A stretch of DNA of 39,618 nucleotides from Turicibacter sp. (lineage in GTDB: Bacteria > Bacillota_I > Bacilli_A > MOL361 > Turicibacteraceae). This document shows positions 123-21,104 of this stretch, one piece after another (within the stretch, counting starts at the first letter, position 1; the number at the start of each line of letters is the position of its first letter). The translations under genes and the position numbers were made by a program. The notes beneath the pieces were generated by a model. That model was not told the origin of the DNA, did no database searches, and saw nothing but the letters and a program-made list of their open reading frames with translations. The stretch lies in assembly GCA_009787345.1 (NCBI GenBank), contig WRGF01000210.1, positions 1-39,618 of the forward strand. Direction: 5' to 3'.

Positions 123-914
123 GTAACTCTTTATACTCCTCAGAACTGGATATTAGCCGCACTGAGAAACAAAAAAATGTTTTCTCTAGAGGAATTGAAC
201 CAGAATATCCGGGTTAAACTGGCAGAGTTCAACAGCCGCAGCTTTCAAAAGCGGGAAGGAAGCCGTGAATCCGTGTTTTTGACAGAGGAAAAGGATTATT
301 TGATTCCCCTTCCGGACAAGCCTTTCCAAATCTCGGAGTGGAAGACCGCCAAGGTTCAGTTCCATTACCATATTGCAGTCGACAAGATGAAATACAGTGT
401 CCCCTACGAATACATCAAACATACCGTAGATGTCAGGATGACTGCCGGGACCATCGAAATTTTTTACCGTGCTTTAAGGATTGCCTCCCACCCCAGGCTG
501 ACAGGAAAGCCCAACCAATACAGCACGCTCCATGAACATATGCCCCCTAACCACCAGCATCAGGCTGAATGGGATGCCGCCCGTTTTATAAACTGGGCAA
601 AGCGCATCGGTCCTAGCACAGAAAAGGTAATCCGGCCTATTCTTGATTCAAGCCAGATTGAGCAGCAGTCCTATAAATCCTGCATGGGCATTCTGCGTTT
701 GGGGGATAAACATGGCGTCCTAAGGCTAGAAAAGGCAGCTGAAAAATCCTTGACTTATACAGGCAGGCCCAGCTATAAGAATATAAACATGATATTAAAA
801 AACGGCCAGGATACGCTCCCGACCGATACTTATGCCCCACGAAGCCAGAAAAACAGCGACGAATTTGTGATTTCACGGGGATCAGCTTATTATGGAGGCG
901 ATGAATCATGTTAA
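123..914 (+). pseudogene. istA: IstA transposase of IS21 family, 5'-truncated
   Basis: IS21 transposases are usually about 400-520 aa. Here only the C-terminal half is left. The reading frame is open from 123, just after a TAA at 120-122. IstA-like sequence is visible from about position 141 (WILAALRN followed by FSLEELN), before the first ATG at 177. The conserved C-terminal region follows (FNSRSFQKREGSR, then the beta-barrel-like HYHIAVDKMKYSVPYEY segment). The catalytic DDE residues lie upstream and are absent, so this cannot be an active transposase. The 3' end overlaps the istB start codon at 908, the usual coupled arrangement in this family. A free-standing gene starting at 177 would be a fragment. 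Confidence 0.85.
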
Positions 915-1652
915 ACCAGGAAACCATCAGGATTTTAAGGGAGCTAAAGTTGGGGGTCGTTAGCGGAGGACATGCAGCGTCAGCAGGACGACCCACTGGT
1001 CAGGGGACTTTCCTTTGAAGACCGGTTCGGGTTGCTCATAGATGCCGAGTATGCCCGCAGGCAGAACAATAAAATCGCCAATTTAATACGCAAAGCCCAT
1101 TTTCAAGATAAGGGAGCCTGTTTGGAAGATATTAAATATTTTCCTGACAGAAATTTAAATAAGACGGAAATTGCTTCCCTTTCTTCAGGCGTGTACTTAG
1201 AAGAAAAGAGGAACATTATTATTTTGGGAGCAACAGGAGCCGGGAAATCATTTTTGGCACAGGGGCTAGGTCTATCCGCCTGCCGAAAAGGGAAGAAAGT
1301 ACGCTACATCCGGCTACCGGAGCTATTGGTCGACTTTTCCATAGCAAGAGGTGAAGGGACTTATCAAAAACTCATGTCGGAATATAAAAAATATGATTTG
1401 ATCATCTTGGACGAGTGGCTCTTCCATCCTCTGTCCGATAATGAGGCAACCGATCTATTGGAAATAATACAGGCTCGGTACCAGAATGGATCGATTATCT
1501 TTTGTTCCCAAATAGCAACGGGAGGGTGGGTCGATAAGCTAGGTGCGGTCAATGTAGCAGAAGCCATCATCGACCGTATCCTTCATAATTCTTATGAGAT
1601 AAGGATTGAAGGGCAGGAATCGATGAGAAAGAGAACCGGGATTAAGTCCTAG
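908..1652 (+). pseudogene. istB: IstB helper ATPase of IS21, single-base frameshift near codon 16
   Basis: IstB is the AAA+ ATPase that helps IstA select targets. The natural start is the ATG at 908, overlapping the istA stop, which gives MLNQETIRILRELKLG as in intact IstB proteins. The matching continuation (SLAEDMQRQQDDPLV) lies in another frame. One base therefore appears to be lost or gained near the GGGGG run at 952-956. The downstream frame, with its first ATG at 972, is open for 226 codons. It keeps Walker A (GATGAGKS) and Walker B (LIILDEW), and the total length of about 247 aa equals a normal IstB. A sequencing error in the G run is the main alternative, and a short product from 972 would lack the N-terminal IstA-contact region. 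Confidence 0.85.
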
Positions 1653-2963: not shown

Positions 2964-3099
2964 GGTCGTAATCATTATTTGGGAGGACACCTAACATGGA
3001 ATATTTCAAAGCAAGGGAAGAGGATTTAGCATTCATCGCCGAAATGCTGGATTTCAGCAATAACAACGGTAGTTATGGAAGGGGCTACCCAAAAGGTGA

Positions 3100-3147
3100 T
3101 TTACAGGGACTTACCTATGAATATGTCGTGTACAAAATGCTACTTTT
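3100..3147. other. attL of the prophage
   Basis: The core TATGAATA lies at 3116-3123, with the predicted central dinucleotide GA at 3119-3120. The element-side arm ACAAAATGCTACTTTT (3132-3147) is the exact reverse complement of the arm at attR (14028-14043), and both arms lie exactly 8 bp from the core. This symmetry is typical of attP half-sites of large serine integrases. The host-side half is acetyltransferase coding sequence. Confidence 0.88.
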
Positions 3148-3157
3148 AAGATATACT
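3129..3157 (+). promoter_or_regulatory. Integrase promoter overlapping the att arm
   Basis: TGTACA (3129-3134), a 17-bp spacer and TATACT (3152-3157) lie 30 bp before the integrase start. The -35 and spacer overlap the integrase-binding arm, so integrase bound at attL/attP could repress its own gene (inference). Confidence 0.55.
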
Positions 3158-3186
3158 GATTTCTAGTGTAGACGGAGGTAGTGGAA

Positions 3187-4737
3187 ATGGACGGAAAGAT
3201 TGATATTAAGCGTGTTGCGATTTATTCTAGGAAGTCTAGACCCGATGAGACGGAGGATGCTTTGAAACGGCAATTACAAGTTTTGGTGGATATGGCACAG
3301 GCAAATTCATGGGAATGGGAAGTTTTTCAGGAAGTGGGTTCTTCCATGAGCATGGACGAAGCTGTTCGTCCAGAACTTAATAAGATGCTTCGGAAAATCC
3401 AGTCTTATGATTTCGATGGGGTTTTGGTGACTGATGCGGATCGATTAAGCAGGGACATGGAGCATTCTGCCTACATGAAAAAAATGTTTTCCAATTATGG
3501 GGTTAAGCTGATTACGACTACTAAGGTTTATGACTACAACAGTCAAGAGGACGATTTAATGTCTGATATGATGGCTATTATCGCTAAGCAAGAATACCTT
3601 AATATCAAAAAACGTTTGAAACGGGGCAAGAAGGCATCAGCTATGGAAGGGAAATTTCAGGGGAGGGCACCTTTAGGGTACAAAAAAAACCGTGATTCCG
3701 TTCGCCTAGAGGTGGATGAATTAGAAGCCCCTCTCGTTCGCAGAATATTTGCTATGTATCTCGCAGGACAGTCAACACCTGAGATTGCCAGGGTTTTAGA
3801 ATTAGAGGGGACGCGTTCTCCCAATGGGGCTGTATATATGAAGTCACATGTCGGGAAAATACTCAATAGCGAAGTATACATCGGAACTGCAATCTATGGA
3901 AAATGCATGGTGTCTAAGACAGAGATGACACCTAGCGGTAGCCTTCGGCGAATTAAAAATGATACAGAAAATCAAATTCGTGTAGAAAATGCCCACGAAC
4001 CTATTATATCATTAGAGGATTGGGATGCTGTGCATAAAATCAGGAAGTCAAGGGCATCAATACCCATTGCAGGAAGAATTGCGAAAAATCCATTCAGTAA
4101 TTTAATTACCTGTGCGATTTGTGGTAAGGGACATACATTCCAACGGAATCGCAAGGATTTAACTATAAGGGTGTCAAGTTGTGAAACGCCAACCTATCAT
4201 AAAGACGGCACCTATACACTTTGTGCAAACCAGTCTTGTAAATTTGAAATATTGAAAGAAGGTATTTATGAGGAACTTTCCAAATATGTTGAAAGACTGA
4301 AAGACCATTTGGATCAGATCCGCTCAAAAACCGATAAGAATGCTCCATATTCACCAGATGCAGACATTAAGAAATGCCAGGCTGAAATCACGAAGCTTGA
4401 GACCCAGATCAAAAAAACCTCTCAAGCCTTTATTCTGGACATGATGGATGAATCGGAAGCCCAGCTTCAAATCAAGCAGAGGAAACAAAAAATTGGGGAG
4501 TTGCAAGTTAAGATTGAGAAGCTTCAAAACATGCAAGAAGAGGACAGCATTAAACCCCTGGAAGTATTTATTGCCCGTCTGGAATCCATCTTAAATGGCA
4601 CATCTGATATGGAATCACGAGATTTGAACACGCTATTTAAGTCTTTCATTGAAAAAATAGAGTACCGCCGATTAGGTCGCAAAAAAGGAGACTTTAAGGC
4701 CCCTATTGAAATACATATCTATTATAAAACCCTTTAA
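3187..4737 (+). CDS. Large serine recombinase (phage integrase)
   Basis: A 516-aa site-specific recombinase that would catalyse integration and, with a directionality factor, excision. The N-terminal resolvase domain holds the catalytic Ser14 in YSRKS, the DADRLSRD segment and the long linking helix. A recombinase domain follows (about 160-270, GYKKN...LVRRIFAMYLAG). A zinc-ribbon comes next (CAIC, then two later Cys near C-A-N-Q-S-C), and a coiled coil at roughly 400-480. That is the standard large-serine-recombinase order and length. ATG 3187 is chosen over GTG 3181 because GGAGG at 3173-3177 is then 9 bases away. The gene sits about 65 bp from the core, as usual for these enzymes, and ends in its own terminator. 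No directionality factor is recognised; the small ORFs at 4872, 5050 and 6960 are candidates. Confidence 0.95.
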   Translation: MDGKIDIKRVAIYSRKSRPDETEDALKRQLQVLVDMAQANSWEWEVFQEVGSSMSMDEAVRPELNKMLRKIQSYDFDGVLVTDADRLSRDMEHSAYMKKMFSNYGVKLITTTKVYDYNSQEDDLMSDMMAIIAKQEYLNIKKRLKRGKKASAMEGKFQGRAPLGYKKNRDSVRLEVDELEAPLVRRIFAMYLAGQSTPEIARVLELEGTRSPNGAVYMKSHVGKILNSEVYIGTAIYGKCMVSKTEMTPSGSLRRIKNDTENQIRVENAHEPIISLEDWDAVHKIRKSRASIPIAGRIAKNPFSNLITCAICGKGHTFQRNRKDLTIRVSSCETPTYHKDGTYTLCANQSCKFEILKEGIYEELSKYVERLKDHLDQIRSKTDKNAPYSPDADIKKCQAEITKLETQIKKTSQAFILDMMDESEAQLQIKQRKQKIGELQVKIEKLQNMQEEDSIKPLEVFIARLESILNGTSDMESRDLNTLFKSFIEKIEYRRLGRKKGDFKAPIEIHIYYKTL

Positions 4738-4744
4738 TCCTATG

Positions 4745-4769
4745 AGCCGATGCATGTCGGCTTTTTTTT
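4745..4769 (+). terminator. Intrinsic terminator after integrase
   Basis: AGCCGA (4745-4750) pairs with TCGGCT (4757-4762) and is followed by eight T residues. It separates the integrase unit from the replication operon. Confidence 0.9.
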
Positions 4770-4799
4770 GTGCCTTTGAAAATTACGTCATTTACGTCG

Positions 4800-4828
4800 T
4801 GGTTTGGCGGAGTCTGTCGCTATATAAT
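4800..4828 (+). promoter_or_regulatory. Promoter of the replication operon, sharing a motif with the virion promoter
   Basis: TGGTTT (4800-4805) and TATAAT (4823-4828) are separated by 17 bp. The -35 sits inside GTGGTTTGGC, which recurs in the same place relative to TATAAT at 6891-6920. Upstream lie two TTACGTC copies. The shared layout suggests one regulator acts on both promoters. Confidence 0.6.
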
Positions 4829-4871
4829 CAGGGGGTATCAAATCACGGGAGGTTTTGAAGGGGGTGAAGTG

Positions 4872-5006
4872 ATGGCGGATCAGGAGAAAGCAAAGAGGCC
4901 GAAGGCTAAGGTGAGCGTGACGGTGACTTCGACGGGGACATTGGACTTGGAGAAATTCATTGATGTGGCTATGAGCCTGCCTTCTTTTCACAAGAGCCTG
5001 GCTTGA
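4872..5006 (+). CDS. Small basic phage protein, 44 aa, unknown function
   Basis: The ATG at 4872 follows an AAGGGGGTG ribosome site; the frame is open further upstream but without a start supported by a ribosome site. The N-terminal third is Lys-rich (residues 1-13), then a Ser/Thr/Val-rich strand-like segment, then a short helix ending FHKSLA. It has no cysteines or membrane segment. As the first gene after the replication promoter it could be a DNA-binding accessory of Rep or an excision factor, but nothing in the sequence proves this. I do not recognise a family. Confidence 0.6.
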   Translation: MADQEKAKRPKAKVSVTVTSTGTLDLEKFIDVAMSLPSFHKSLA

Positions 5007-5049
5007 CTTGGATTTCCCTAGGATTTTAAAAAAATAAGGAGTGGTCGGT

Positions 5050-5283
5050 ATGACGGTTAATGAGGTTTATTTGGCGGAACTGGGGCGTGTCCATGCATTG
5101 ATGGATGGGGCACTTTCCTTATTGATGGAAGCGGATTTTGAGTATACCGAACCTTTAAGGGAACGGTTATTGGTGGCGGAGCTTAATCAGCTGATGGGCT
5201 ACAACAAGCGGTTGGTGGCTTGCCTGGAAAGCCATTTGAAGTTTCGTGAAATTTATTTTTCTGGGTTTCCTTCATGGGATTGA
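5050..5283 (+). CDS. Small helical phage protein, 77 aa, unknown function
   Basis: AAGGAG at 5036-5041 lies 8 bases before ATG 5050, so this start is preferred over GTG 5041. The protein looks all-helical and acidic in its first two thirds (VYLAELGRVHALMDGALS...). It has one Cys and ends in an aromatic tail. Its 3' end overlaps the rep start by ten bases, so it is probably translated together with rep. No family is recognised. Its position fits a replication accessory protein. Confidence 0.65.
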   Translation: MTVNEVYLAELGRVHALMDGALSLLMEADFEYTEPLRERLLVAELNQLMGYNKRLVACLESHLKFREIYFSGFPSWD

Positions 5284-6383
5284 CGATGCTCATTGACTGG
5301 GTGACGGCGACTTTCCATCATGTGACGGTGGATGAGGTGAAGTTGCTTTTGAACCTGGAGGAACAGCTTTGGGAGGAAGGCGGTAGGTTTCGCCAACATG
5401 GTTATCTTACTTCGGAGTCCATTGGTGGGATTACCCTATCCTCGGGTTCCGATCATGAGGGCATGAAGCATACGGTGAACGTCGTAGTTTCAGGAAATGG
5501 GTGCCGATTTTTGGAGGAGCATATTAAAAGTTGGCCTGAACTTTTCCAAAGTTTTTATTTAAGCTGTGAGGAACATTCGAGGAAGCTAAATTTTACCCGC
5601 ATTGACCTGGCTATTGACGATCGGCGGGAAGCGGATGAACTGACCATGGCCATTGATTGGCTCCATGATAAAATCGTGAGTGGCGAATGCAAGACGCGGA
5701 TCAAGAATGTGGCCTTTAAGAATGGTAGGAAAATCAGGCAACCTGGCGAGGAAGAGGAAAAGAATGAAGAACTATTAACCCTTGGGAGCCGAAGCAGTGA
5801 AACCTATATCCGTATTTATAACAAGCGATTGGAACAGCTGTCAAAGCTTAGGCAGGCACCAAAAGATAAGCAGGAAGAAATGCGTCGCTTGATCCCAGAC
5901 CGTTGGGACCGTTTGGAGATTGAAATCAAAGGGGATAAGGCCAATCAAGTCGGGCGGATGGTTGCCGATGATTTGGATATGTCCCATCTGGCCCTTGGGA
6001 TTTTAAACAACAACTTGGAATTGGTGGATAGGACTTACCTGAAAAATGGGGCTTTGAAGAAAAAGCGGTCTTGGGTGACCAATCCGAAATGGAAGGCTTT
6101 CATCGGTGAGGTGGAGAAAATAAAGCTGGTGACGGAGCCTAAGAACCTGAATCTGGAACAAAAAATCCTGTACATTGAAAAGGCCCATGGGAAAACCCTG
6201 GCGATGATCGACAGGGCTGAAAAAGGGCTGACCGTCCTGAAAAAAGATGATTCCAATCAGTTGATTGGCATGTCGCGTCCTAAAATACTGGATACCATCA
6301 TCCGTGAAAGCAAGGACAAGTTGGACACTAAGGATTATCATCTGGTAGCAGAATATGTGGCCCATCATCAAAAAGTAGAATAG
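5274..6383 (+). CDS. rep: Rolling-circle replication initiator, Rep_trans family
   Basis: A 369-aa protein of the replication initiation factor family (plasmid pT181 RepC, Tn916 Orf20 and several Gram-positive filamentous phages). Visible motifs are DWVTATF at the N-terminus, FTRIDLAIDD near 107-116 (acidic metal-binding strand), SETYIRIYNKRLEQ near 175-188 (strand with the nicking Tyr and YNK) and RLEIEIKG near 213-220. These proteins nick one strand at the double-strand origin and stay bound to the 5' end through tyrosine, which for a filamentous phage would start viral-strand synthesis. The start is either ATG 5274 or ATG 5286; the second begins MLIDWVTA, closer to family starts. It overlaps the preceding ORF and ends at a hairpin shared with the convergent regulator gene. 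Confidence 0.92.
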   Translation: MGLTMLIDWVTATFHHVTVDEVKLLLNLEEQLWEEGGRFRQHGYLTSESIGGITLSSGSDHEGMKHTVNVVVSGNGCRFLEEHIKSWPELFQSFYLSCEEHSRKLNFTRIDLAIDDRREADELTMAIDWLHDKIVSGECKTRIKNVAFKNGRKIRQPGEEEEKNEELLTLGSRSSETYIRIYNKRLEQLSKLRQAPKDKQEEMRRLIPDRWDRLEIEIKGDKANQVGRMVADDLDMSHLALGILNNNLELVDRTYLKNGALKKKRSWVTNPKWKAFIGEVEKIKLVTEPKNLNLEQKILYIEKAHGKTLAMIDRAEKGLTVLKKDDSNQLIGMSRPKILDTIIRESKDKLDTKDYHLVAEYVAHHQKVE

Positions 6384-6387
6384 GAAA

Positions 6388-6418
6388 AAAACAGGTTGGA
6401 TGTGCTCCTTCCTGTTTT
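6388..6418. terminator. Bidirectional terminator between rep and the regulator gene
   Basis: AAAACAGG (6388-6395) pairs with CCTGTTTT (6411-6418), with A-run before and T-runs after, so it can serve both convergent genes. Confidence 0.75.
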
Positions 6419-6424
6419 CGGGTT

Positions 6425-6724
6425 TTATAGGGCTGTTGTTGCCTGGGCAACGAGATAAAGGTAACAGCTGTAAAGACCATAACTGACGCAAAGCCAGCCG
6501 AAGCACCCAGCGTAGATTTGGTCCATGGTGCAGTTCAGCCTTAGGGTAATGAGGTAAGCCACGTCCCCTGGCAATTTGGCATACCCGCCTTCATAGCGTT
6601 GATATTGTCGCGGATCTTTGAGGCCAATCCCCATTCCTACCAGTTGCTCTTGGGTGTAACCTTCTGCTGTGCGTAGCGTGATTAAGTTATCCGCTACCAT
6701 GTCTTTATTTGCTCTTGTGTCCAT
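6425..6724 (-). CDS. XRE-type HTH regulator with hydrophobic tail, 99 aa
   Basis: ATG 6724 follows AAAGGAGTG. Residues about 9-60 form an XRE-like helix-turn-helix (DNLITLRTAEGYTQEQLV ... YQRYEGGYAKLPGDVAYLITLRL). The residues after it are unusually hydrophobic and aromatic (GCFGWLCVSYGLYSCYLYLV), which may be a membrane segment or a dimer interface. It is the only gene on the minus strand inside the element and reads away from the virion operon across a repeat-filled intergenic region. This is the classic place for a lysogeny repressor. I infer that it controls its own promoter and the two plus-strand phage promoters. Because of the tail, a membrane-tethered regulator sensing phage assembly is conceivable but unproven. 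Confidence 0.75.
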   Translation of the reverse strand: MDTRANKDMVADNLITLRTAEGYTQEQLVGMGIGLKDPRQYQRYEGGYAKLPGDVAYLITLRLNCTMDQIYAGCFGWLCVSYGLYSCYLYLVAQATTAL

Positions 6725-6754
6725 CTTTATCACTCCTTTGGAATTAATAGGGTA

Positions 6755-6881
6755 ATTATACATTAAATGCTAAATTGGCATTGTCGAATTTTGTTTGAGT
6801 TCGTAATTACGACAAGGTTGTCGTCTTTTTGTGTCGAATTTCACGAAGTGGATTTTTCAATTTTTGGTAGTGGATTACGAC
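6755..6881. promoter_or_regulatory. Candidate operator cluster of the phage regulator
   Basis: A minus-strand -10 (TATAAT, at 6755-6760) precedes the regulator gene. Next to it lie TGTCGAATTT at 6782-6791 and again at 6832-6841, exactly 50 bp apart. Between them is the palindrome ACGACAA-GG-TTGTCGT (6809-6824). ATTACGAC recurs at 6806-6813 and 6874-6881. The repeats sit between the divergent regulator and virion promoters, as expected for a lysogeny switch. Confidence 0.6.
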
Positions 6882-6891
6882 GGAAGTGACG

Positions 6892-6920
6892 TGGTTTGGC
6901 AGGGGACGCCTTGGTATAAT
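6892..6920 (+). promoter_or_regulatory. Promoter of the virion/assembly operon (extended -10)
   Basis: TGGTTT (6892-6897), a 17-bp spacer and TATAAT (6915-6920), preceded by TG-n at 6912. It shares GTGGTTTGGC and the spacing with the promoter at 4800-4828. Confidence 0.7.
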
Positions 6921-6959
6921 TAACGTGTAAGGAAAATTAAGAAAGCGGTGGTGAGTGAG

Positions 6960-7142
6960 ATGAATAATGTAAACGTGTATGACAAGTCGGAGCATGTTCA
7001 GTCCATCTATGTGGCCGAGCGTTTTTCCCAGAAGAACCAGTCCATGTATTATGTGTTGGTGGTGGAGTTCAAGGACGGGTATGTGATTGATACGTTTTTG
7101 AACCAGGACAAGAAGCGGATCATGGAGACTTATGGTTCCTAA
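6960..7142 (+). CDS. Small phage protein, 60 aa, first gene of virion operon
   Basis: ATG 6960 follows GGTGGTGAG. The sequence alternates polar and hydrophobic residues in a way that suggests a small beta-rich domain (SIYVAERFSQ, YYVLVVEFKDG, YVIDTFL). It has no membrane segment and no cysteine. In Ff-type phages a small beta-barrel ssDNA-binding protein (pV) is encoded upstream of the coat genes and no other pV candidate is seen. This ORF is therefore a possible pV counterpart, though it is shorter than the 87 aa of Ff pV and I see no diagnostic motif. It overlaps the next ORF by 11 bases. Confidence 0.7.
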   Translation: MNNVNVYDKSEHVQSIYVAERFSQKNQSMYYVLVVEFKDGYVIDTFLNQDKKRIMETYGS

Positions 7143-7401
7143 TGAGGGTTATGATTTAGTGGATTTGCCGGAAATCTTAGATGAGGTTTTAGAGGCTGAA
7201 AGCTATGAGTCCGTTGAAGTCTTGGAAATCAGGGATTACAGCGAACTGGTGATGGCCGTTGAACAGATTCAGGAGTCTTTGGAAGTGGTTCAGATGGCTT
7301 CCCTTGCCCATTATGTGTTTTTGGCGGGGATCTTGCCGGGTGCCTTTGTCCTGTTTTGCATTTATAAGATCCTTCGGCGGTTCACCATGAATTATCGGTA
7401 G
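7132..7401 (+). CDS. Small single-span membrane protein of the phage, 89 aa
   Basis: It overlaps the previous ORF and has GGAGA just before the ATG at 7132. Residues 1-55 are strongly acidic and helical (many Glu and Asp). A membrane segment follows (about 59-79, HYVFLAGILPGAFVLFCIYKIL), ending in a short basic tail RRFTMNYR. The charge pattern, acidic outside and basic inside, follows the positive-inside rule with the N-terminus out. A minor virion-tip protein (pVII/pIX role) or an assembly scaffold in the membrane would fit its place just ahead of the major coat gene. No family is recognised. Confidence 0.7.
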   Translation: MVPNEGYDLVDLPEILDEVLEAESYESVEVLEIRDYSELVMAVEQIQESLEVVQMASLAHYVFLAGILPGAFVLFCIYKILRRFTMNYR

Positions 7402-7413
7402 GCTTTCCAGCTT

Positions 7414-7441
7414 ACTGCCCGAAAATTGGTTTTCGGGCAGT
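7414..7441 (+). repeat. Perfect 12-bp hairpin upstream of the coat gene
   Basis: ACTGCCCGAAAA (7414-7425) is perfectly complementary to 7430-7441 around the tetraloop TTGG. No T-run follows, so it is not an obvious terminator. Candidate roles are an RNase-processing or stabilising hairpin for coat mRNA, or a packaging hairpin of the viral strand. Confidence 0.75.
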
Positions 7442-7493
7442 TGGGTGGGCGGTGTACAACGTGTTGCCAATTTGTTTGAAGGGAGGGATTGCC

Positions 7494-7640
7494 ATGTTTC
7501 AGATTACTGCTGACATGCTTCAGCCGATTGTGGATTCGGTGACGACCAATGTGCCGATTGTTGCGGGCGTTGGGATGTCCATCATCGCAGTGGGTGTCGG
7601 GATCCGTTTTGTGATCCGTACCATTAACCAGTTCATGTAG
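7494..7640 (+). CDS. Major coat protein, pVIII-like, 48 aa without leader
   Basis: GGGAGGG precedes ATG 7494. The product has the layout of mature filamentous-phage coat proteins. An amphipathic N-terminal part has two Asp (residues 1-19), then a Gly/Val/Ile-rich membrane helix (about 20-36, VPIVAGVGMSIIAVGVG), then a basic C-terminus with two Arg that would face the DNA. The length matches mature Ff (50 aa) and Pf1 (46 aa) subunits. No cleavable signal peptide is present; phage Pf3 also makes a leaderless coat protein. It lies between a strong hairpin and a terminator, which fits separate high-level expression. The call rests on size, charge layout and position, not on a sequence match. Confidence 0.8.
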   Translation: MFQITADMLQPIVDSVTTNVPIVAGVGMSIIAVGVGIRFVIRTINQFM

Positions 7641-7659
7641 TTTCCCTTGGGTGTTGGCG

Positions 7660-7682
7660 GGCAGACCGCTTTAGCGGTTGCC
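7660..7682 (+). repeat. Hairpin just after the coat gene
   Basis: GGCA-ACCGC (one unpaired G) pairs with GCGGT-TGCC around TTTA. Flanking CCCTTGGG and CCCAGGG can extend it. It may protect the 3' end of coat mRNA. Confidence 0.55.
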
Positions 7683-7724
7683 TGGCAAGCCCAGGGAATC
7701 CCATGAAGGGTTCAGGACGATTTC

Positions 7725-7753
7725 AAGCCGTAGCCGGGAGGTTGCGGTTTTTT
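7725..7753 (+). terminator. Intrinsic terminator between coat and adsorption protein genes
   Basis: AAGCCGTAGCC (7725-7735) pairs with 7740-7750 through eight Watson-Crick and three GU pairs, loop GGGA, followed by six T. Ff phages also have a terminator after gene VIII; here it should likewise cut expression of the downstream minor proteins. Confidence 0.7.
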
Positions 7754-7783
7754 CAATCCATCGGCAAGAAAAGGAGGCTTATC

Positions 7784-9574
7784 GTGAGAAAACCAATGAA
7801 ACTGATGCTTTGCTCGCTGTTGTCGCTGGTGATGTTTGTCACCCCGGTGATGAAGGCCCATTCCCTTGCCCTGACCCTGGGGATCGGGCTGGCCATCAAG
7901 TCGGCCCCTGCCTGGGTGCCTTTGGTTGGGAAATATTTGTTTTCGGCAACTTCCGTGGCGGGCCTTGCTTATGGGTCGGCCCATCTGACCCATGCAAGCG
8001 GTGCGATGGATGAGATTTCGGCGTTTGCCGAGAGGCTTTGGCAGGACGCTCCCCGCCACATCGAGGAAGCCCTGGCGGAGAAAATCCTGTTGGCACAGCT
8101 GGCGGGGGACAATGTGGTCAACCTGACGGAGGAGGTTTGGCAGTGGTTTGTGGAAGCGACGGCCAGTTCATTGTTGGAACTGGCTCCCCGCCATGCGTCA
8201 GAGGAACATTTCTTTGAGCTGTCCCGCCTGTTTGATGGGTATTTTACGTCGCCCTGCACCAACACGGGGATGTTTGTTTCCTGCGGGGTGACCCTTGGGA
8301 ACCCGTCCAACCCAACTGACCTTGGAATCTGGGCAACGCTCAATGGGCAGTTCCAATTTATGACGGGGTTTGACCATAATGCGGAATCTGCGTTGCGGAT
8401 CAATCTGGTGTTTGACCGCCAAAACCAAAACGTGGTGGTGATGAGGCACACGAACCATGCCCATTTCAATGTCATCCAGATGCCACCGGCCAGTTCGGTG
8501 GTGGGCTGGCAGAACATGAGCCATTCAACGGCTTCGTTTCGGGAGGCCATGGCCCGGGGGTTTTACTTTTCCTTGTCCCTGGAGTATTTTCCCCAGGTGG
8601 GCGAGTTATTGCCCCTGAACTGGGCGATCCCCGCCATTGAGTCGGTGAGCGGGCTTCGCTATGCGTTGAACAATGAGTCCATGCGGGACCGGATCGAAAC
8701 ATTCCCCTTGGATGTGACGAATGCCATTAATTCGGTGCGGGAGAAATCGGGGGGCGGGATTGCCATCCCTTTGGAGGATGCCATCCCCCATCACAACGGG
8801 ATCCCTTTGAATGTGGACCGTGAGCTTGGGCTGATGTTTCCCAGTGGCATCCCTTTGACCGATGAACAACAGCGGGAGGTTGCCTGGCCTGGCCTTGGGT
8901 TTCCTGCCATCGAGGACGGGGGCTGGACCACTGCCGACCGGGTGACGGATACGGTTCCCCCTGGCGTGATTTCCCCACCTGTAACTGCCACGCCTGAACT
9001 GGCGGGGATTTTGGGGTTTTTACAAAGCATACTGAATGGGATTTTGGCCATCCCAGGGGGGATTATCCAGGGCTTGACGAATATCTGGAACGCTGTCCTT
9101 GCCATCCCTGGATCAATTGCGGGCGGGATTGCCAATGTCTTTGATTGGCTCCAGTCTTTCTTTTTCATCAATGAACTGGAACTGGACGGGCTGTTGGATT
9201 TGGACTTGGACGTGCCGACAGAGGTCTTGCCCGAACTGCCTTGGCTGTCGCCTCTCTTAGAGCGGGGCAGGGATTTCTTGTTTGATGTTTTCAATATTTA
9301 TCAGTTCGTCCTTGATTTCATTTCGGGGATCTCCAATTATTTCGGCAATGCCATGGCCCTTAATGGTCGCAATACCCAAAGCCATAACCTGCCTGAAAAC
9401 GTAAGCTGGGACATTCCTTTGGTGGGGACGTTGGATCTGCCGTTTATGAACCCTTACTTTTTGGAGGTGATGAGGCACACCTGGCGAAACCGCATTGGCT
9501 CCATGTTCATTATCCTGACGGGTTTGGCTCTTGTCCGCAAGTTTGCCAGTTTCCTTAATTCCGTCAAAATTTAG
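7784..9574 (+). CDS. pIII-like adsorption/minor coat protein, 596 aa
   Basis: AAGGAGG at 7771-7777 lies 6 bases before GTG 7784, which starts a typical signal peptide (basic KPMK, hydrophobic MLCSLLSLVMFV, small residues near 24-29). The long exposed part has a single Cys pair (158 and 167), which could form a disulfide. Proline-rich linkers follow near 370-420, then a Gly/Ile-rich hydrophobic stretch (about 425-475, repeated AIPG motifs). The C-terminal region ends in a membrane anchor (SMFIILTGLALV) and a basic tail. Signal peptide, large exterior, C-terminal anchor and position between the coat and pVI-like genes match pIII of filamentous phages. The hydrophobic repeats could insert into the membrane during release. 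The frame extends upstream to 7703 but across the terminator. Confidence 0.8.
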   Translation: MRKPMKLMLCSLLSLVMFVTPVMKAHSLALTLGIGLAIKSAPAWVPLVGKYLFSATSVAGLAYGSAHLTHASGAMDEISAFAERLWQDAPRHIEEALAEKILLAQLAGDNVVNLTEEVWQWFVEATASSLLELAPRHASEEHFFELSRLFDGYFTSPCTNTGMFVSCGVTLGNPSNPTDLGIWATLNGQFQFMTGFDHNAESALRINLVFDRQNQNVVVMRHTNHAHFNVIQMPPASSVVGWQNMSHSTASFREAMARGFYFSLSLEYFPQVGELLPLNWAIPAIESVSGLRYALNNESMRDRIETFPLDVTNAINSVREKSGGGIAIPLEDAIPHHNGIPLNVDRELGLMFPSGIPLTDEQQREVAWPGLGFPAIEDGGWTTADRVTDTVPPGVISPPVTATPELAGILGFLQSILNGILAIPGGIIQGLTNIWNAVLAIPGSIAGGIANVFDWLQSFFFINELELDGLLDLDLDVPTEVLPELPWLSPLLERGRDFLFDVFNIYQFVLDFISGISNYFGNAMALNGRNTQSHNLPENVSWDIPLVGTLDLPFMNPYFLEVMRHTWRNRIGSMFIILTGLALVRKFASFLNSVKI

Positions 9575-9585
9575 GAGGTGGTGGA

Positions 9586-10005
9586 ATGACGGTTGTTTTA
9601 GCATTTATCGCCAAAGCCTTTGTGGCACTTAAGACGTTTTTGTTCAACCAGGGGCTGACGGCCAGCATTATTTTCTCGGTGGTGACCCAGCAAAAATTCA
9701 GGAATGCACGGCAGGCTTTGATGCTTCCCATCCTGATTTTGTTTTATACGACGCTGATCGTGTTTGTCACGTCCCTGATGTCCACGTTGGTGACGGGGAT
9801 CGACGGGTTCTTTGCCCAGTTCGCGGGAACCCTGACACTGTGGCACTGGATCAATGGGAACATCAATTATTTTTTCCCGATGGATACGCTGATTTCCTGT
9901 ATCCTTATCTTGCTGACGTTCCATTATACGGATTTTTCCTTAAGGGCGTTCCGGTGGGGCTGGTCGGTGATGAACAGCCTGTTCCAAAAAATTTTCAAAC
10001 AATGA
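9586..10005 (+). CDS. pVI-like multispan membrane protein, 139 aa
   Basis: AGGAGG precedes ATG 9586, 11 bases after the pIII-like gene. Three to four hydrophobic segments are visible (about 2-18, 45-68, 85-113). A short hydrophilic stretch lies between the first two (QQKFRNARQ) and the tail is basic and amphipathic (RAFRWGWSVMNSLFQKIFKQ). Ff pVI (112 aa, three spans) lies directly after gene III and caps the same virion end. Order and topology agree here, although no sequence motif is shared that I can see. Its TGA overlaps an ATG at 10002, so translation is probably coupled to the Zot gene. Confidence 0.75.
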   Translation: MTVVLAFIAKAFVALKTFLFNQGLTASIIFSVVTQQKFRNARQALMLPILILFYTTLIVFVTSLMSTLVTGIDGFFAQFAGTLTLWHWINGNINYFFPMDTLISCILILLTFHYTDFSLRAFRWGWSVMNSLFQKIFKQ

Positions 10006-10019
10006 AAGAGGGTTTTAGC

Positions 10020-10730
10020 ATGAAGCCAAAAAAGGTCATTTATTATTCGGAAGTTGGGTTTTTCCAAAAGCTTGGGCGGTTTCTTTGGCTGAAGGCGAAG
10101 GATTTTCGTCTGGCACTCAAAGATAAAAACACGGATTTCAAGGAGTTTGGGCTGACCCTTTACTGCGGTCGCCAGGGCGGTGGCAAGACGACGGCCATGA
10201 CGGAGTATCTGGAGCGGATGAGGCGGAAATACCCTGGGTGCGTGGTGCTGACCAATTACGGCTATGCCAACCAGGACCGGGAGTTTCAGGATTGGAACGA
10301 TTTTTTTGAGGTACGGAACGGGCAGAAGGGTGTGATCTTTGCCATTGACGAGATCCAAAATGAGTTCAATTCCACGGCTTGGCGGAATTTTCCCGAGACC
10401 CTGCTGTCGGAGATTACCCAACAGCGGAAACAGCGGGTGAAGATCATTGCCACGTCCCAGGTGTTCGGGCGGGTGGCGAAGCCTTTGCGGGAGCAGTGCT
10501 ATGAGGTGGTGGAGTGCCGGACCTTCCTCGGCCGTTGGACGTTTACACGGGCATTTGACGCCTATGAGTACAACCACATCGTGGACAACCCGGAAAAGAA
10601 AAGCAAGCTGAGGAGGCTGTGGCGAAAGTCATTCGTGCAGGACGCGGGGCTTCGGGCACTTTATGATTCTTATGCAAAGATTGAGCGGATCCAGAGGCAA
10701 ACCTTTGTGGAACGTAGCGAAAGGGTTTAA
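10020..10730 (+). CDS. zot: Zot/pI-type assembly ATPase, 236 aa
   Basis: This is the morphogenesis motor that all inoviruses carry. Walker A is GRQGGGKT (50-57). Walker B is VIFAIDEIQ (D110, E111), and sensor-like IIATSQVFGRV follows. The aromatic-rich segment after it (CYEVVECRTFLGRW) is typical of the Zot domain. Ff pI is 348 aa with a membrane span and a periplasmic domain that contacts the pIV secretin. Here the protein stops soon after the ATPase domain with a basic tail and no clear membrane span, as might be expected in a host without an outer membrane. AAAGAGGG supports ATG 10020; ATG 10002, overlapping the previous stop, is the alternative. The strong terminator behind it closes the virion operon. 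Confidence 0.92.
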   Translation: MKPKKVIYYSEVGFFQKLGRFLWLKAKDFRLALKDKNTDFKEFGLTLYCGRQGGGKTTAMTEYLERMRRKYPGCVVLTNYGYANQDREFQDWNDFFEVRNGQKGVIFAIDEIQNEFNSTAWRNFPETLLSEITQQRKQRVKIIATSQVFGRVAKPLREQCYEVVECRTFLGRWTFTRAFDAYEYNHIVDNPEKKSKLRRLWRKSFVQDAGLRALYDSYAKIERIQRQTFVERSERV

Positions 10731-10739
10731 GGACAGCAA

Positions 10740-10765
10740 AAAACCGCTCCCAACGGGGCGGTTTT
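10740..10765 (+). terminator. Intrinsic terminator of the virion operon
   Basis: AAAACCGC (10740-10747) pairs with GCGGTTTT (10758-10765) with an inner CCC/GGG; an outer ACAGC/GCTGT pair extends it. Confidence 0.9.
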
Positions 10766-11093
10766 CGTGCTGTTTAGGGTTTTGGGCAAGGGGAACCCGG
10801 CAGGGCCGGGGCCACTTGCTTGCTTTTTATCTTTTACAGTGGAGCGTTAGCGAAACGGCAGGAACGTAAGACCCGAAGGGAGTGGACGCAGACGCAGGCT
10901 CCCATGAGGAAATTTAGGCAAGGCATGGACTTCATCCGATGGTGACGCATCTTTTGACCTTTTCATTAGCCAGTGAGACAACCCTGGTGGCGGGCTTTGC
11001 CTTGCTTCAAGGATTGGAATGCGACTGCCTCGGAGCGTAAGCGGAGAATCCTTAAATCGGGTTTTAATCTTTTATGGACAGGAGGCCAGTTAA
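10766..11093. other. Structured noncoding region, candidate phage origin/packaging signal
   Basis: No plausible gene is seen in these 328 bases. They hold a GC hairpin CCCGGC-AGG-GCCGGG (10796-10810) and three copies of GGA(G/A)CGT(T/A)AG at 10841, 10861 and 11032. The tandem GACGCAGACGCA lies near 10885, and the inverted pair GCAAGGCA (10918-10925)/TGCCTTGC (10998-11005) further on. Filamentous phages keep their origins and packaging hairpin in one intergenic region; this is the only long GC-rich gap in the element. The function is inferred from structure and place only. Confidence 0.5.
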
Positions 11094-11243
11094 ATGATAA
11101 CAGAAATCGTGGTGTGTGATGGGTGCAATCAGGAGACGGTTAGGCATGAGGCTCAGGCAGTTTATGATGGTGGCGGGGTTTTTGTTTTGGCTTTTTGTTT
11201 GGGGTGCTGGGAGAAGATGGCGGGGTGTCAAAAATCTGGGTGA
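11094..11243 (+). CDS. Small zinc-finger-like protein, 49 aa
   Basis: CAGGAGG lies a few bases before ATG 11094. The product has two CxxC knuckles, CDGC near residues 8-11 and CLGC near 35-38, plus a further Cys at 45. This suggests a single treble-clef or ribbon zinc site. In between is a short Gly-rich turn (YDGGGVFVLAF). Such tiny zinc proteins are common in Gram-positive phages and plasmids, usually with unknown function. It is the last gene with phage-like base composition before the AT-rich cargo. Confidence 0.65.
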   Translation: MITEIVVCDGCNQETVRHEAQAVYDGGGVFVLAFCLGCWEKMAGCQKSG

Positions 11244-11256
11244 ATCCTAAAATTGC

Positions 11257-11289
11257 ATATATCCCCCATTACTAATAGGGGGGTATATA
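11257..11289. repeat. 11-bp hairpin at the border of the AT-rich cargo
   Basis: ATATATCCCCC (11257-11267) pairs with the GGGGGGTATATAT side from 11278, with one GU pair and a 10-nt loop. Base composition turns sharply AT-rich here. The following 11290-11612 contain no gene I can support; a TATAAT at 11567-11572 may be the -10 for the immunity gene. Confidence 0.6.
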
Positions 11290-11612
11290 TGTAAAAAACA
11301 AAATATTACTTTATTTTTGAATAAATGGCAAATTTCGACAATATATCCTTTTTTTATATGTTAATATTCTATTGTTAATTATTTTATTGCGTTAATTTAT
11401 TTGTACTTAATACGCTGAAGGGAATGTCGCTTTTTTCTCCATAGAATTCCAGATGCCTTTTGTAGCGATATGATGAAATCAAAAATCATGGCTTGGGAAA
11501 TAGGAACAAATTCCTTTTTTAAGCTATTCACCGTAATGAGCTTTTATATATCAACTTGACGCAGACTATAATTATTTAAAATTCAAAATTTACAGAAAAT
11601 AGGTGGTCTAAA

Positions 11613-12473
11613 ATGGAAATGACAAAAATTTGGCAATATGGAGAACCCGATGAGTATGAGTTGGAGGATTTAACCCAAGAAAAGATATTAAAAGTTGAAA
11701 ATGAACTAGCAGTAAATTTACCTATTACATATTTGGAACTACTAAAGAAAAAAAATGGAGGAAGGCTCTATACTCCTATGTTGTTAGATAATGTTTTTCA
11801 AACTGATGAATTAATTGGAGATACAGAGGAAGTACAAATCGAATATTTTTTAGGTGTTAGTGATAAAAATTGCGAAGGCATTTTACAGTCAAAGTTTTTA
11901 ATTCAAGAATGGGAACTTCCAAATAAAATCGTTTTGTTTTCGGGTGATGGTCATTGGTGGCTTGCATTTGATTATAGGAACCATAATGGCTCAAACCCCC
12001 CAATTGTATATCTAGATTCAGACTATGCTATGGACGAAATTGTAGCTAATAGCTTTGATGAGCTGATTAAAAAATTGAAACCTAAGCCAACGGAATTTTA
12101 TGAACTTACAATACCAGAAATTGATTATAGTCCAGCCTCTATTGAAAGTACCTTTAAGAAGGGAAAGGATATTTATACTATAACTTCTGGATTTCGTATT
12201 TTATCACAACAAGGTTATGAAATCAACTGGTTAGTAGAAAAATTAATACTAATTGCCCACCACTCAGATTTTTTATCTGTATTTTCTTGTGAGTATTATC
12301 TTTTAGAGCGTTTGAAAACCGTAAAGAAGAGTGAACTAAATATAGGGCTAATGAATCAGTTATTAGAAAAATTATTAACCTACCCGTCAAAAAAAAATTA
12401 TGATATAAATGAGATTGTCATTAGGGAGGCAAGGAAAATTCAAAAATTATTTCTTGAAAACTTAATTGATTAA
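11613..12473 (+). CDS. SUKH/SMI1-KNR4 family immunity protein, 286 aa
   Basis: AGGTGG precedes ATG 11613. Residues about 18-155 match the SMI1/KNR4 (SUKH) pattern. There is an N-terminal helix with ENELAVNLPITYLELLKKKNGG, the turn FLGVSD, then KIVLFSGDGHWWLAFDYR and the acidic strand IVYLDSD. SUKH proteins are the commonest immunity proteins of bacterial nuclease toxins; they bind and block the toxin's catalytic domain. The remaining ~130 residues are helical and unfamiliar. The gene stands 29 bp before the toxin gene, so immunity is made first, the reverse of the more usual order. It is AT-rich unlike the phage core, pointing to separate acquisition. Confidence 0.85.
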   Translation: MEMTKIWQYGEPDEYELEDLTQEKILKVENELAVNLPITYLELLKKKNGGRLYTPMLLDNVFQTDELIGDTEEVQIEYFLGVSDKNCEGILQSKFLIQEWELPNKIVLFSGDGHWWLAFDYRNHNGSNPPIVYLDSDYAMDEIVANSFDELIKKLKPKPTEFYELTIPEIDYSPASIESTFKKGKDIYTITSGFRILSQQGYEINWLVEKLILIAHHSDFLSVFSCEYYLLERLKTVKKSELNIGLMNQLLEKLLTYPSKKNYDINEIVIREARKIQKLFLENLID

Positions 12474-12502
12474 TTATTTATAAACTGGGAGGATTTTACA
12501 TT

Positions 12503-13603
12503 ATGAAAAAAGAATTCAGCAAATTTTTGAGTATATTTTTATCATTTTCAATATTTTTTAATCTATTATTAACGAGCCAAATTGCTGTAACTGCTGTGGA
12601 GATTGATGTTTTAGTAAGGCAAGAACGTATTGTCGGTGGAGTAATTATCGGTAGTGGTCCTGGCGGTACTCCTGTTGTTAGCGGTCCTATTGGCGGTACT
12701 CCTGTTGTTAGTGGGCCTATTAGCGGTGGTAATATCATTGATGAATTAGATGAATATTTTGATATCACCTTATTTGAACACTATTCCCTCGAGGAACTAG
12801 TTAAACTCGGTTTTTTCATTGATATTGATGAAGCAGTTGATAATTATCTGGATTATTTAGAAGGAGGTTATGCTCTTACTTATAAAGAAATGGTAGAAAG
12901 AGGGTATTATACTACTCTTGAAGAAGCTGAATTCTTCACAAATTTACCAGACCAAGAATGGAAGGAAATTTCTTTATTACTAGAAGATGAATATGCTTGG
13001 TATATTCTTCCTGACTTATATTTAAGCAGTAAAGGAATTATTAGCTACTTTGAATTATTTGAACAGCCATATACTCTTATTTCTCAAGATGATTGGATAT
13101 GGGATACCTCTGTTCGTCCTCAAGAACGAATAATCTGGTTTGTTATCCCTGCAAAATTTGCAGTAACAAAAACATTTCTTAAAGCTGGTGGGGTTACAGG
13201 TGTTAAAGTAAGACAGACTCTTGCTAATGGTTCTCAGCGGTGGATTCCAGTAATAAATGGACATTTGCGAGGACAAGTAGGTGCATTTGGAGTTCGCTAT
13301 AACATGGCTGGCTTTCCTATTTTTGCTTCTAGGTTTACTATGAGATTAAAAAACGCAGACTTAAAGCAAACTCGCGGAGTGCATATTAGTCGAGCGAATG
13401 CAGCCTTACGACAGCAATTTAACAGAACTGCTGGTAGAATGGGATTTAGTGAGGTTCAAATAAGGGACATTCAAGCTGGAATAACACCACGAGGACTAAC
13501 ATGGCATCATCATCAAGATAGGGGAGTTATGCAATTAGTTAATACAGCTCATCACCAAGCTAATCGTCATACAGGTGGTTTTGCAATATGGGGAACAAGG
13601 TAA
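12503..13603 (+). CDS. Secreted nuclease toxin with C-terminal WHH/colicin-DNase-like domain, 366 aa
   Basis: GGGAGG precedes ATG 12503. A clear Sec signal peptide spans about 1-31 (KKEF, then a long Phe/Leu core, then AVTA). A Gly/Pro-rich linker with two copies of GGTPVVSGPI (about 53-74; exact 30-bp DNA repeat apart from two bases) follows. Next is an acidic helical region (80-190) and a basic C-terminal region. The last 36 residues carry WHHHQDRGVMQLV followed by H-x4-H-TGG (W334-G359), the signature of the HNH/ENDO VII-fold nucleases of the colicin-DNase/WHH group; the histidines should bind the catalytic metal. It is a stand-alone secreted toxin rather than an RHS or LXG protein. Export to the medium is inferred from the signal peptide. 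How it enters targets is unknown. Confidence 0.85.
   Translation: MKKEFSKFLSIFLSFSIFFNLLLTSQIAVTAVEIDVLVRQERIVGGVIIGSGPGGTPVVSGPIGGTPVVSGPISGGNIIDELDEYFDITLFEHYSLEELVKLGFFIDIDEAVDNYLDYLEGGYALTYKEMVERGYYTTLEEAEFFTNLPDQEWKEISLLLEDEYAWYILPDLYLSSKGIISYFELFEQPYTLISQDDWIWDTSVRPQERIIWFVIPAKFAVTKTFLKAGGVTGVKVRQTLANGSQRWIPVINGHLRGQVGAFGVRYNMAGFPIFASRFTMRLKNADLKQTRGVHISRANAALRQQFNRTAGRMGFSEVQIRDIQAGITPRGLTWHHHQDRGVMQLVNTAHHQANRHTGGFAIWGTR
12661..12720 (+). repeat. Two tandem 30-bp repeats in the toxin linker
   Basis: Positions 12661-12690 and 12691-12720 are almost identical and each encodes a GGTPVVSGPI unit. Copy-number change would alter linker length without a frameshift. Confidence 0.85.
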
Positions 13604-13701
13604 ATTAAATTTATCATTAACTTAACTAAATCACTCTTAATACCAATATTGATTCAAATGATTTGATCGTTCAGAATGAGATATATTATTCAAAAATAAA
13701 G

Positions 13702-13729
13702 AAACCGTACAGTGTGTTCGGTTTTTTTT
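13702..13729 (+). terminator. Intrinsic terminator of the toxin operon
   Basis: AAACCG (13702-13707) pairs with CGGTTT (13719-13724) and is followed by eight T. The region 13730-13995 is AT-rich and shows no gene or clear signal. Confidence 0.8.
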
Positions 13730-13995
13730 GTCTCCATACTCTGGACATTTTTAAACTAATTTCTTATCTCATCGAATAGCTAACTGGATAATCCAACCTA
13801 ATTTAGCCTATTTAGAGGTACCCTTAAGATAAAAAACTTTTAACTGTTGATTTTATCAACTTTTTGGACATACGAATTAAAATAGAATTTTGTTTGCCAA
13901 CTATTTATATGGTTTGGCTTCAATTATTCCAATATTCAATTACAATCTCAATGAAGTCCTTAAGGATTTGTTTACTTAAAAAATGGTCAAAAACG

Positions 13996-14024
13996 TTGAT
14001 GTTACGATGAAAAAAGGGTATACT
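13996..14024 (+). promoter_or_regulatory. Outward-facing promoter at the right end of the element
   Basis: TTGATG (13996-14001), a 17-bp spacer and TATACT (14019-14024) read across attR into the split acetyltransferase and the VOC gene. In the circular form the same promoter would lie about 100 bp before the integrase gene. Confidence 0.55.
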
Positions 14025-14027
14025 AAT

Positions 14028-14059
14028 AAAAGTAGCATTTTGTTTACTACTTATGAATA
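14028..14059. other. attR of the prophage
   Basis: The element-side arm AAAAGTAGCATTTTGT (14028-14043), 8 bp, then the core TATGAATA (14052-14059) with GA at 14055-14056. It mirrors attL exactly in spacing. Host coding sequence resumes at the core. Confidence 0.88.
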
Positions 14060-14816
14060 CGAGGAAGATGGCACGACCCTTCTTGAAAATTTTTACATCA
14101 TCGGCGACCGCCTGGGCATTTTCGGGATTTACGATAAGGATTGGGGGCTTTATATCCTCGGCCCGGTCTTTAAGCCTGTGCACCATACAGTGGAAAACGT
14201 CGTGGGGATTTTTGAACAAATCACGGCCCTTGAGGAGTTGGAAGGGAAGGAAGTGGACGTGGATGTGGTGGAGGCCAATGATGTGATGCTAAAAGCCCTT
14301 CCACAAGCGGGATTCGAAAACTCTTACAAAGGGGTTGCCATGAGTTACGATTTGCGAAAGCATGAGGCAAAGGAAATCCCCTACAAAATCGTGGAAGTCA
14401 CCTTGGATGACCGTGAATACTTAGAGGAAATCCATCAGATTTTTTTGGAAGGGCTTGATTTTTGGTCCCGCCGAAAAAGCTTGGACGACTTGGTTGAATG
14501 CCTGGAGGACGGCTCTAAGATTGCCATTTTGCTTGAAGGCGAAAAGGTGGCGGGGGCAGGTGTCTGGAACTTCGATGGCACCCTAAACGAAGGGGAAATG
14601 GAGTACCTTTGCGTGGCGAAAACGTCCCAGGGCAAGGGCTATGGCAAATCGCTTTTGGATTATGCTGCCAACCAGCTTGCTTTGAATGTAACCTTGCCAG
14701 GAGAAGCCACCTGGTTCTTGGATACGGCACAGGAAAACGTCAACGCCATCGAATTTTACACGCATTATGGCTTTGCAGTGGATTATTACCGCAGTTCGTT
14801 CAGGAGGCAATTATGA
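14052..14816 (+). pseudogene. 3' fragment of the GNAT acetyltransferase split by the prophage
   Basis: 254 codons of the host gene whose first 40 codons lie at 2996-3115. It carries the second half of an N-terminal domain (FYIIGDRLGIFGIYDKDWG) and a complete C-terminal GNAT fold. In that fold EYLCVAKTSQGKGYGKSLLD holds the acetyl-CoA loop Q-x-x-G-x-G and ENVNAIEFYTHYGF is motif B. The frame is open back to an ATG at 13983 inside the element, but no ribosome site supports it and the promoter at 13996-14024 lies downstream of it. The fragment is therefore probably not translated well. Base composition returns to that of the host here. Its TGA overlaps the start of the VOC gene, so the two were an operon. 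Confidence 0.85.
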
Positions 14817-20958: not shown

Positions 20959-21104
20959 AGGCTTAAACCTCCTTTCGGGAACTTTATTCGAGGGTATGCC
21001 TGATGTATGTTCAGCCATGCCCTGGGCTAATATATACTATGATTATGGGCGGGATTGTGCTATTATAATTTATAGCTATTACACTATATGCGAGGATTGA
21101 TACT

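What the first reader, a model, noticed from the sequence alone, without database searches (positions are those of the whole stretch)
3119..14055. Complete inovirus-like prophage in a spore-forming Gram-positive host
The element combines a large serine integrase, a Rep_trans rolling-circle initiator and a full set of virion-layout genes (pVIII-, pIII-, pVI-, Zot/pI-like) in the order of filamentous phages. It lies within exact ends in a chromosome that also encodes SspI. Filamentous phages are well known in Gram-negatives, and few are characterised in single-membrane bacteria. All genes look intact, so virion production may be possible.
Basis: partly seen in the sequence, partly recalled or inferred. 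Interest (0 to 1): 0.93.

Follow-up and report, generated by a model that had tools for sequence, protein, structure and literature searches.

The report
Filamentous prophage carrying a bacterial DNase
A spore-forming, single-membrane bacterium carries a complete-looking filamentous (inovirus-type) virus inserted cleanly into one of its genes, and the virus also carries a predicted secreted DNA-cutting toxin with its matching antidote, so it may arm its host against neighbouring bacteria.

Summary
Window 3116-14051 (10,936 bp) is a mobile element inserted in an acetyltransferase (GNAT) gene, bounded by an 8-bp identical core; its inner ends form an attP-like palindrome. It encodes a large serine integrase, a Rep_trans initiator, an HTH repressor and an inovirus morphogenesis block in canonical order: pVIII-like, pIII-like, pVI-like, Zot/pI ATPase. 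Zot passes the Pfam cut-off, its predicted fold best matches the Neisseria Zot domain in the PDB, and its relatives (up to 69% identity) lie in the same gene order in Streptococcus, Jeotgalibacillus and Clostridia. The host genome has Spo0A and lacks Omp85 and secretin, so a single-membrane spore-former is supported.

The inovirus core is not new to databases: an IMG/VR contig equals window 5286-11243, but lacks integrase, ends and cargo. Most likely this is a temperate filamentous phage extruded without a secretin and carrying an antibacterial toxin-immunity module. Virion production, excision and toxicity were not shown. Overall: a new variant of a known kind.

The parts
3116..14051 (.). whole integrated element (10,936 bp)
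   Evidence: 8-bp core at both ends; interrupted GNAT restored by joining the flanks
2996..3115 (+). 5' part of the interrupted GNAT gene (outside the element)
14052..14816 (+). 3' part of the interrupted GNAT gene (outside the element)
   Evidence: Acetyltransf_1 1.4e-11; junction alignment
3116..3148 (+). attL: core plus inner arm
   Evidence: complementary to the attR arm
14027..14059 (+). attR: inner arm plus core
3187..4737 (+). large serine integrase (start ATG 3187; ORF from GTG 3181)
   Evidence: Resolvase 7e-26, Recombinase 5e-23; phrog_95 integrase 9e-99
4872..5006 (+). small ORF, unknown
   Evidence: no family
5050..5283 (+). small ORF upstream of rep, unknown
   Evidence: no family
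5274..6383 (+). Rep_trans rolling-circle initiator (start may be ATG 5286)
   Evidence: PF02486 2.3e-34, PF18106 4.9e-6
6425..6763 (-). HTH repressor-like gene, divergent from the structural block
   Evidence: HTH_3 0.005, below cut-off
6960..7142 (+). small ORF in the position of the relatives' 85-99 aa first gene; possible ssDNA-binding protein (position only)
   Evidence: no family match
7132..7401 (+). 89-aa ORF with C-terminal hydrophobic segment; minor coat candidate
   Evidence: weak match to the syntenic gene in L029, 9e-3
7494..7640 (+). pVIII-like major coat protein, 48 aa, one hydrophobic segment, basic C-terminus
   Evidence: homologues at the same place, best phmmer 2e-9; 22-40% identity in alignment
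7784..9574 (+). pIII-like minor coat/adsorption protein with signal peptide and C-terminal hydrophobic anchor (start GTG 7784)
   Evidence: 28-38% identity over 64-126 aa to syntenic proteins, phmmer to 5e-8, alignment
9586..10005 (+). pVI-like small membrane protein, three hydrophobic segments
   Evidence: position, hydropathy, 3e-3 to L029
10020..10730 (+). Zot/pI-like morphogenesis ATPase, 236 aa, without the C-terminal part of M13 pI
   Evidence: PF05707 5e-5, above cut-off; relatives up to 69% identical; best PDB fold match Neisseria Zot N-domain 2r2a
10731..11093 (+). non-coding, strongly folding interval; candidate replication/packaging region (inferred)
   Evidence: DNA fold of 10728-11093 z -2.49, 0 of 100 shuffles as stable
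11094..11243 (+). small ORF, unknown; last gene before the GC drop
   Evidence: no convincing family
11613..12473 (+). SUKH (SMI1/KNR4) immunity protein, cargo
   Evidence: PF09346 4.3e-18; similar to SUKHs next to related nucleases
12503..13603 (+). predicted secreted DNase toxin: signal peptide, unique middle, C-terminal Colicin-DNase/WHH nuclease; cargo
   Evidence: PF12639 1.7e-21, PF14414 1.2e-11; N-terminal hydrophobic segment
13870..13909 (+). degenerate second attR-like half-site
   Evidence: 30/40 identical to attR; best of 100 dinucleotide shuffles 27

Best explanation
A temperate inovirus (filamentous ssDNA phage) of single-membrane Bacillota, integrated by its own serine integrase into a GNAT gene and carrying an antibacterial toxin-immunity cassette as cargo. 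Shown by sequence: element ends, gene set, gene order, families. Inferred: the integrase excises a 10.9-kb circle; Rep_trans nicks it and drives rolling-circle replication to ssDNA; pVIII-like subunits in the membrane coat the DNA as the Zot ATPase extrudes it, with the pIII- and pVI-like proteins at the tips. No secretin is needed because there is no outer membrane. The SUKH protein protects the lysogen while the exported nuclease kills or inhibits related cells lacking it, favouring lysogens and penalising loss of the prophage.
For: Ends and restored target gene; attP-like symmetry; Pfam/PHROG hits; Zot relatives with the same gene order in Bacillota; pVIII alignment; Zot fold match to 2r2a and Inoviridae Zots; no Omp85 or secretin in the host, Spo0A present; SUKH and nuclease families; the same nuclease-SUKH pairing in a Bacillus velezensis LXG locus and on a tailed-phage contig, with SUKHs related to this one; Tox-WHH with Imm-SUKH, including Sec/T2SS-type export, described in PMC3482391.
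Against: No circular junction in the own genome or IMG/VR. No recognised ssDNA-binding protein. pIII model uninformative, pLDDT 36. The immunity gene lies upstream of the toxin, unlike the related pairs. The toxin's N-terminal part has no relatives found, so entry into target cells is unexplained.
Confidence: 0.8

Rival explanations
1. An integrative mobilizable element: serine integrase plus a MobT-like relaxase (the Rep_trans protein) that moves by borrowing a conjugation system.
For: NCBIfam's best match to Rep is MobT, 91 bits, far below its cut-off of 600.
Against: The rest of the element is an inovirus virion block with syntenic relatives; no coupling protein or VirB4-type gene was recognised among the element's proteins scanned; the ATPase is Zot by family and fold.
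Confidence: 0.05
2. A defective inovirus kept by the host for its toxin-immunity cassette; the integrase may work but no virions are made.
For: No circular form seen; GC falls from about 0.53 to 0.32-0.35 at the cargo, so the cargo is foreign to the core; no assigned ssDNA-binding gene.
Against: No truncated or frameshifted gene in the core; symmetric att ends; ribosome-binding sites before most genes.
Confidence: 0.25
3. The SUKH-nuclease pair works mainly as an intracellular addiction module rather than as a secreted weapon.
For: The immunity gene comes first, as in many toxin-antitoxin operons.
Against: The nuclease begins with a signal-peptide-like segment followed by a low-complexity linker, fitting export; a related domain sits on an exported LXG toxin.
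Confidence: 0.2

Closest known systems
IMG/VR contig IMGVR_UViG_3300028325_000019
   Same: Identical to window 5286-11243 over 5,958 bp: the inovirus core of this element
   Different: Lacks integrase, att ends, SUKH and toxin genes
Inovirus prophages of Streptococcus, Jeotgalibacillus, Lacrimispora and Clostridia (e.g. L008, L026-L030, L040)
   Same: pVIII-pIII-pVI-Zot order, Zot 50-69% identical
   Different: In many of those mapped a putative replication gene lies downstream of zot rather than upstream; no relative of this toxin or SUKH; a related serine integrase was seen near only three loci (L067, L088, L096)
Enterocloster/Hungatella inoviruses (PMC10061712)
   Same: Inovirus prophages in spore-forming Gram-positives; secreted particles shown for Enterocloster
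   Different: No nuclease-immunity cargo noted in the passages read
M13 and Pf1
   Same: Gene order and Zot/pI-type ATPase
   Different: M13 pI has 341 residues from the P-loop to the end; this monoderm group has a median of 193 and a maximum of 205. M13 has its own secretin pIV
Tox-WHH/Imm-SUKH polymorphic toxins (PMC3482391) and MuF toxins of tailed phages (PMC5576092)
   Same: C-terminal WHH-type nuclease with SUKH partner (PMC3482391); toxins carried on temperate phages of Bacillota (PMC5576092)
   Different: Here on a filamentous phage, with a signal peptide, a novel N-terminal part and the immunity gene upstream

Membership tests
Inovirus (Tubulavirales) | pI/Zot-type morphogenesis ATPase | tested here: met
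   PF05707 above cut-off; relatives; fold
Inovirus (Tubulavirales) | Short single-segment major coat protein (pVIII) | tested here: met
   Syntenic homologues, alignment A3; virion role itself untested
Inovirus (Tubulavirales) | pIII-like protein with signal peptide and C-terminal anchor | tested here: met
   structure model failed
Inovirus (Tubulavirales) | Rolling-circle replication initiator | tested here: met
   PF02486 2.3e-34
Inovirus (Tubulavirales) | ssDNA-binding protein (pV-like) | tested here: inconclusive
   Candidate 6960-7142 by position only; no family
Inovirus (Tubulavirales) | Filamentous virion with circular ssDNA | not testable with these tools
   Needs culture
Polymorphic toxin system (Tox-WHH/Imm-SUKH) | C-terminal nuclease domain | tested here: met
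   PF12639 1.7e-21, PF14414 1.2e-11
Polymorphic toxin system (Tox-WHH/Imm-SUKH) | Adjacent SUKH immunity gene | tested here: met
   PF09346 4.3e-18; related SUKHs pair with related nucleases
Polymorphic toxin system (Tox-WHH/Imm-SUKH) | N-terminal export signal | tested here: inconclusive
   Hydrophobic N-terminus by hydropathy only; no signal-peptide predictor was available
Polymorphic toxin system (Tox-WHH/Imm-SUKH) | Toxicity neutralised by the partner | not testable with these tools
   Needs expression assay
Integrative mobilizable/conjugative element | MobT-type relaxase above the family cut-off | tested here: not met
   91 bits against 600
Integrative mobilizable/conjugative element | Coupling protein or T4SS genes | tested here: not met
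   None recognised among the element's ORFs scanned

The most novel reading that the evidence does not exclude
A filamentous phage of a single-membrane bacterium that converts its host into a killer: a phage-encoded, Sec-exported DNase with its own immunity gene, the antibacterial counterpart of toxin conversion by filamentous phages of Gram-negatives. The module was acquired as a low-GC cassette that may itself have come in through the same integrase's att-like sites.
Probability: 0.45. Interest if true: 0.7.

Novelty: new variant of a known kind. Interest (0 to 1): 0.55.

Why it matters
Only a few Gram-positive hosts are reported to release inoviruses (PMC10061712). This element has exact ends, an apparently intact gene set and its own integrase, so excision, extrusion without a secretin and toxin conversion can all be tested. 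The shared absence of the C-terminal part of pI in this monoderm lineage gives a concrete hypothesis for how filaments leave cells without an outer membrane. In PMC6813254 all but one of the recognised inovirus toxin-antitoxin pairs came from proteobacteria-associated inoviruses; this is a different class of toxin module, on a Bacillota inovirus.

Tried and rejected
The pIII structure prediction gave pLDDT 36 and was not used. A hydropathy count for a membrane segment after the ATPase was dropped as evidence because the same measure also missed M13 pI; residues after the P-loop were used instead. Rfam found nothing credible. The 11282 att-like site is not significant (25/40, reached by shuffles); only 13870 is. 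Circular-junction searches found nothing. Toxin relatives: none in 391 other genomes of the phylum; one related nuclease on a tailed-phage contig. No SUKH relative was found in IMG/VR by peptide patterns. Assignment of 6960-7142 as ssDNA-binding protein could not be supported.

Full report
Anatomy and ends. The element runs from 3116 to 14051. The octamer TATGAATA stands at 3116-3123 and 14052-14059. Joining the outer flanks gives an open 294-aa acetyltransferase that aligns through the junction with a paralogue in the same genome (42%) and with a homologue in a genome of the same family (31%). The two inner ends, read as attP, form a palindrome with 24 of 30 matching positions (shuffles: mean 15.2, maximum 20 of 500). 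This is the pattern expected of a large serine integrase, and such a gene (Resolvase 7e-26, Recombinase 5e-23; phrog_95 9e-99) lies just inside the left end.

Phage genes. Rep_trans (2.3e-34) follows, then a divergent HTH gene, then in one direction two small ORFs, a 48-aa pVIII-like protein, a 596-aa pIII-like protein with signal peptide and C-terminal anchor, a pVI-like membrane protein and a Zot ATPase (PF05707 5e-5, above cut-off). Zot relatives at 50-69% identity occur in Streptococcus, Jeotgalibacillus, Lacrimispora and several Clostridia, and more distant ones in many more. Many carry a pVIII homologue (phmmer to 2e-9) and, in fewer cases, a recognisable pIII homologue in the same order. 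The Zot model (pLDDT 77) has as its best PDB match the N-terminal domain of Neisseria Zot, 2r2a (E 1e-7, TM 0.52-0.64), and as its best viral match an Inoviridae Zot. No conjugation gene was recognised.

Host. The genome (3.1 Mb, 99.7% complete) has Spo0A and no match to Omp85 or secretin, searches that ring in 7 and 6 of the 14 control genomes respectively. A single-membrane spore-former is therefore supported; its name is not known. Within its class, 5 of 395 genomes including this one have a Zot match below 1e-20, and none of the seven other genomes of its family does, so the element is sporadic.

A shared feature of the lineage. From the P-loop to the end, 93 of these Zots have a median of 193 residues and a maximum of 205; M13 pI has 341, and Pf1's 424-aa protein has its P-loop near the N-terminus. 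In M13 this extra part holds the membrane segment and external domain (established knowledge, not tested here). Its absence fits extrusion without a secretin; this is inference.

Cargo. At about 11250 the GC content falls from about 0.53 to 0.32-0.35, and the last 2.8 kb carry two genes: a SUKH protein (PF09346 4.3e-18) and a 366-aa protein with a signal-peptide-like start, a Gly/Pro repeat linker and a Colicin-DNase/WHH domain (1.7e-21 and 1.2e-11). Both lie inside the att ends. Related nuclease domains sit next to SUKH genes in a Bacillus velezensis LXG locus and on a 39.8-kb tailed-phage contig, and those SUKHs resemble this one (7e-8, 1e-6). PMC3482391 lists Tox-WHH with Imm-SUKH and with T2SS-type export among its routes. 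No relative of the toxin was found among the fetched inovirus loci or in 391 other genomes of the phylum. A second, degenerate attR-like sequence at 13870 (30/40; 100 shuffles reach at most 27) lies between the toxin gene and the true attR, hinting at an earlier integration event.

Novelty. The core is catalogued: an IMG/VR contig equals window 5286-11243 exactly. Inoviruses of monoderm hosts were proposed as separate families in PMC6813254 and secreted particles were shown in Enterocloster (PMC10061712). What is added here is the exact element with its integrase and att sites and the toxin-immunity cargo. MuF toxins on tailed temperate phages of Firmicutes (PMC5576092) show that phages can carry such modules. 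The literature searches run here returned no paper whose title or abstract reports a nuclease-immunity module on a filamentous phage; this is weak evidence, since most of those papers were not read and many journals are not held.

Limits. Excision, replication, particle formation and toxicity are inferred. The ssDNA-binding protein is unassigned, and pVI rests on position and hydropathy.

Noticed in passing
window 13870-13909: Degenerate second attR-like half-site 150 bp from the true attR, with a weaker, non-significant one at 11282 on the minus strand: possible trace of tandem integration that brought in the cargo.
   Followed up: partly
window 10020-10730 and relatives L002-L100: Zot ATPases of this monoderm lineage end about 200 residues after the P-loop, lacking the C-terminal part found in M13 pI and the longer Pf1 protein.
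   Followed up: partly
window 177-1652: IS21-type genes (IstB 1.7e-52, Mu-transposase C-terminal domain) left of the element, apparently an incomplete copy at the window edge.
   Followed up: no
window 32003-33814: Collagen-like GPTGP-repeat protein, reminiscent of exosporium proteins of spore-formers.
   Followed up: no
window 19903-21018: Protein of 371 aa very rich in M, P and Q.
   Followed up: no
window 10728-11093: Non-coding interval after zot that folds far better than shuffles (z -2.49).
   Followed up: partly
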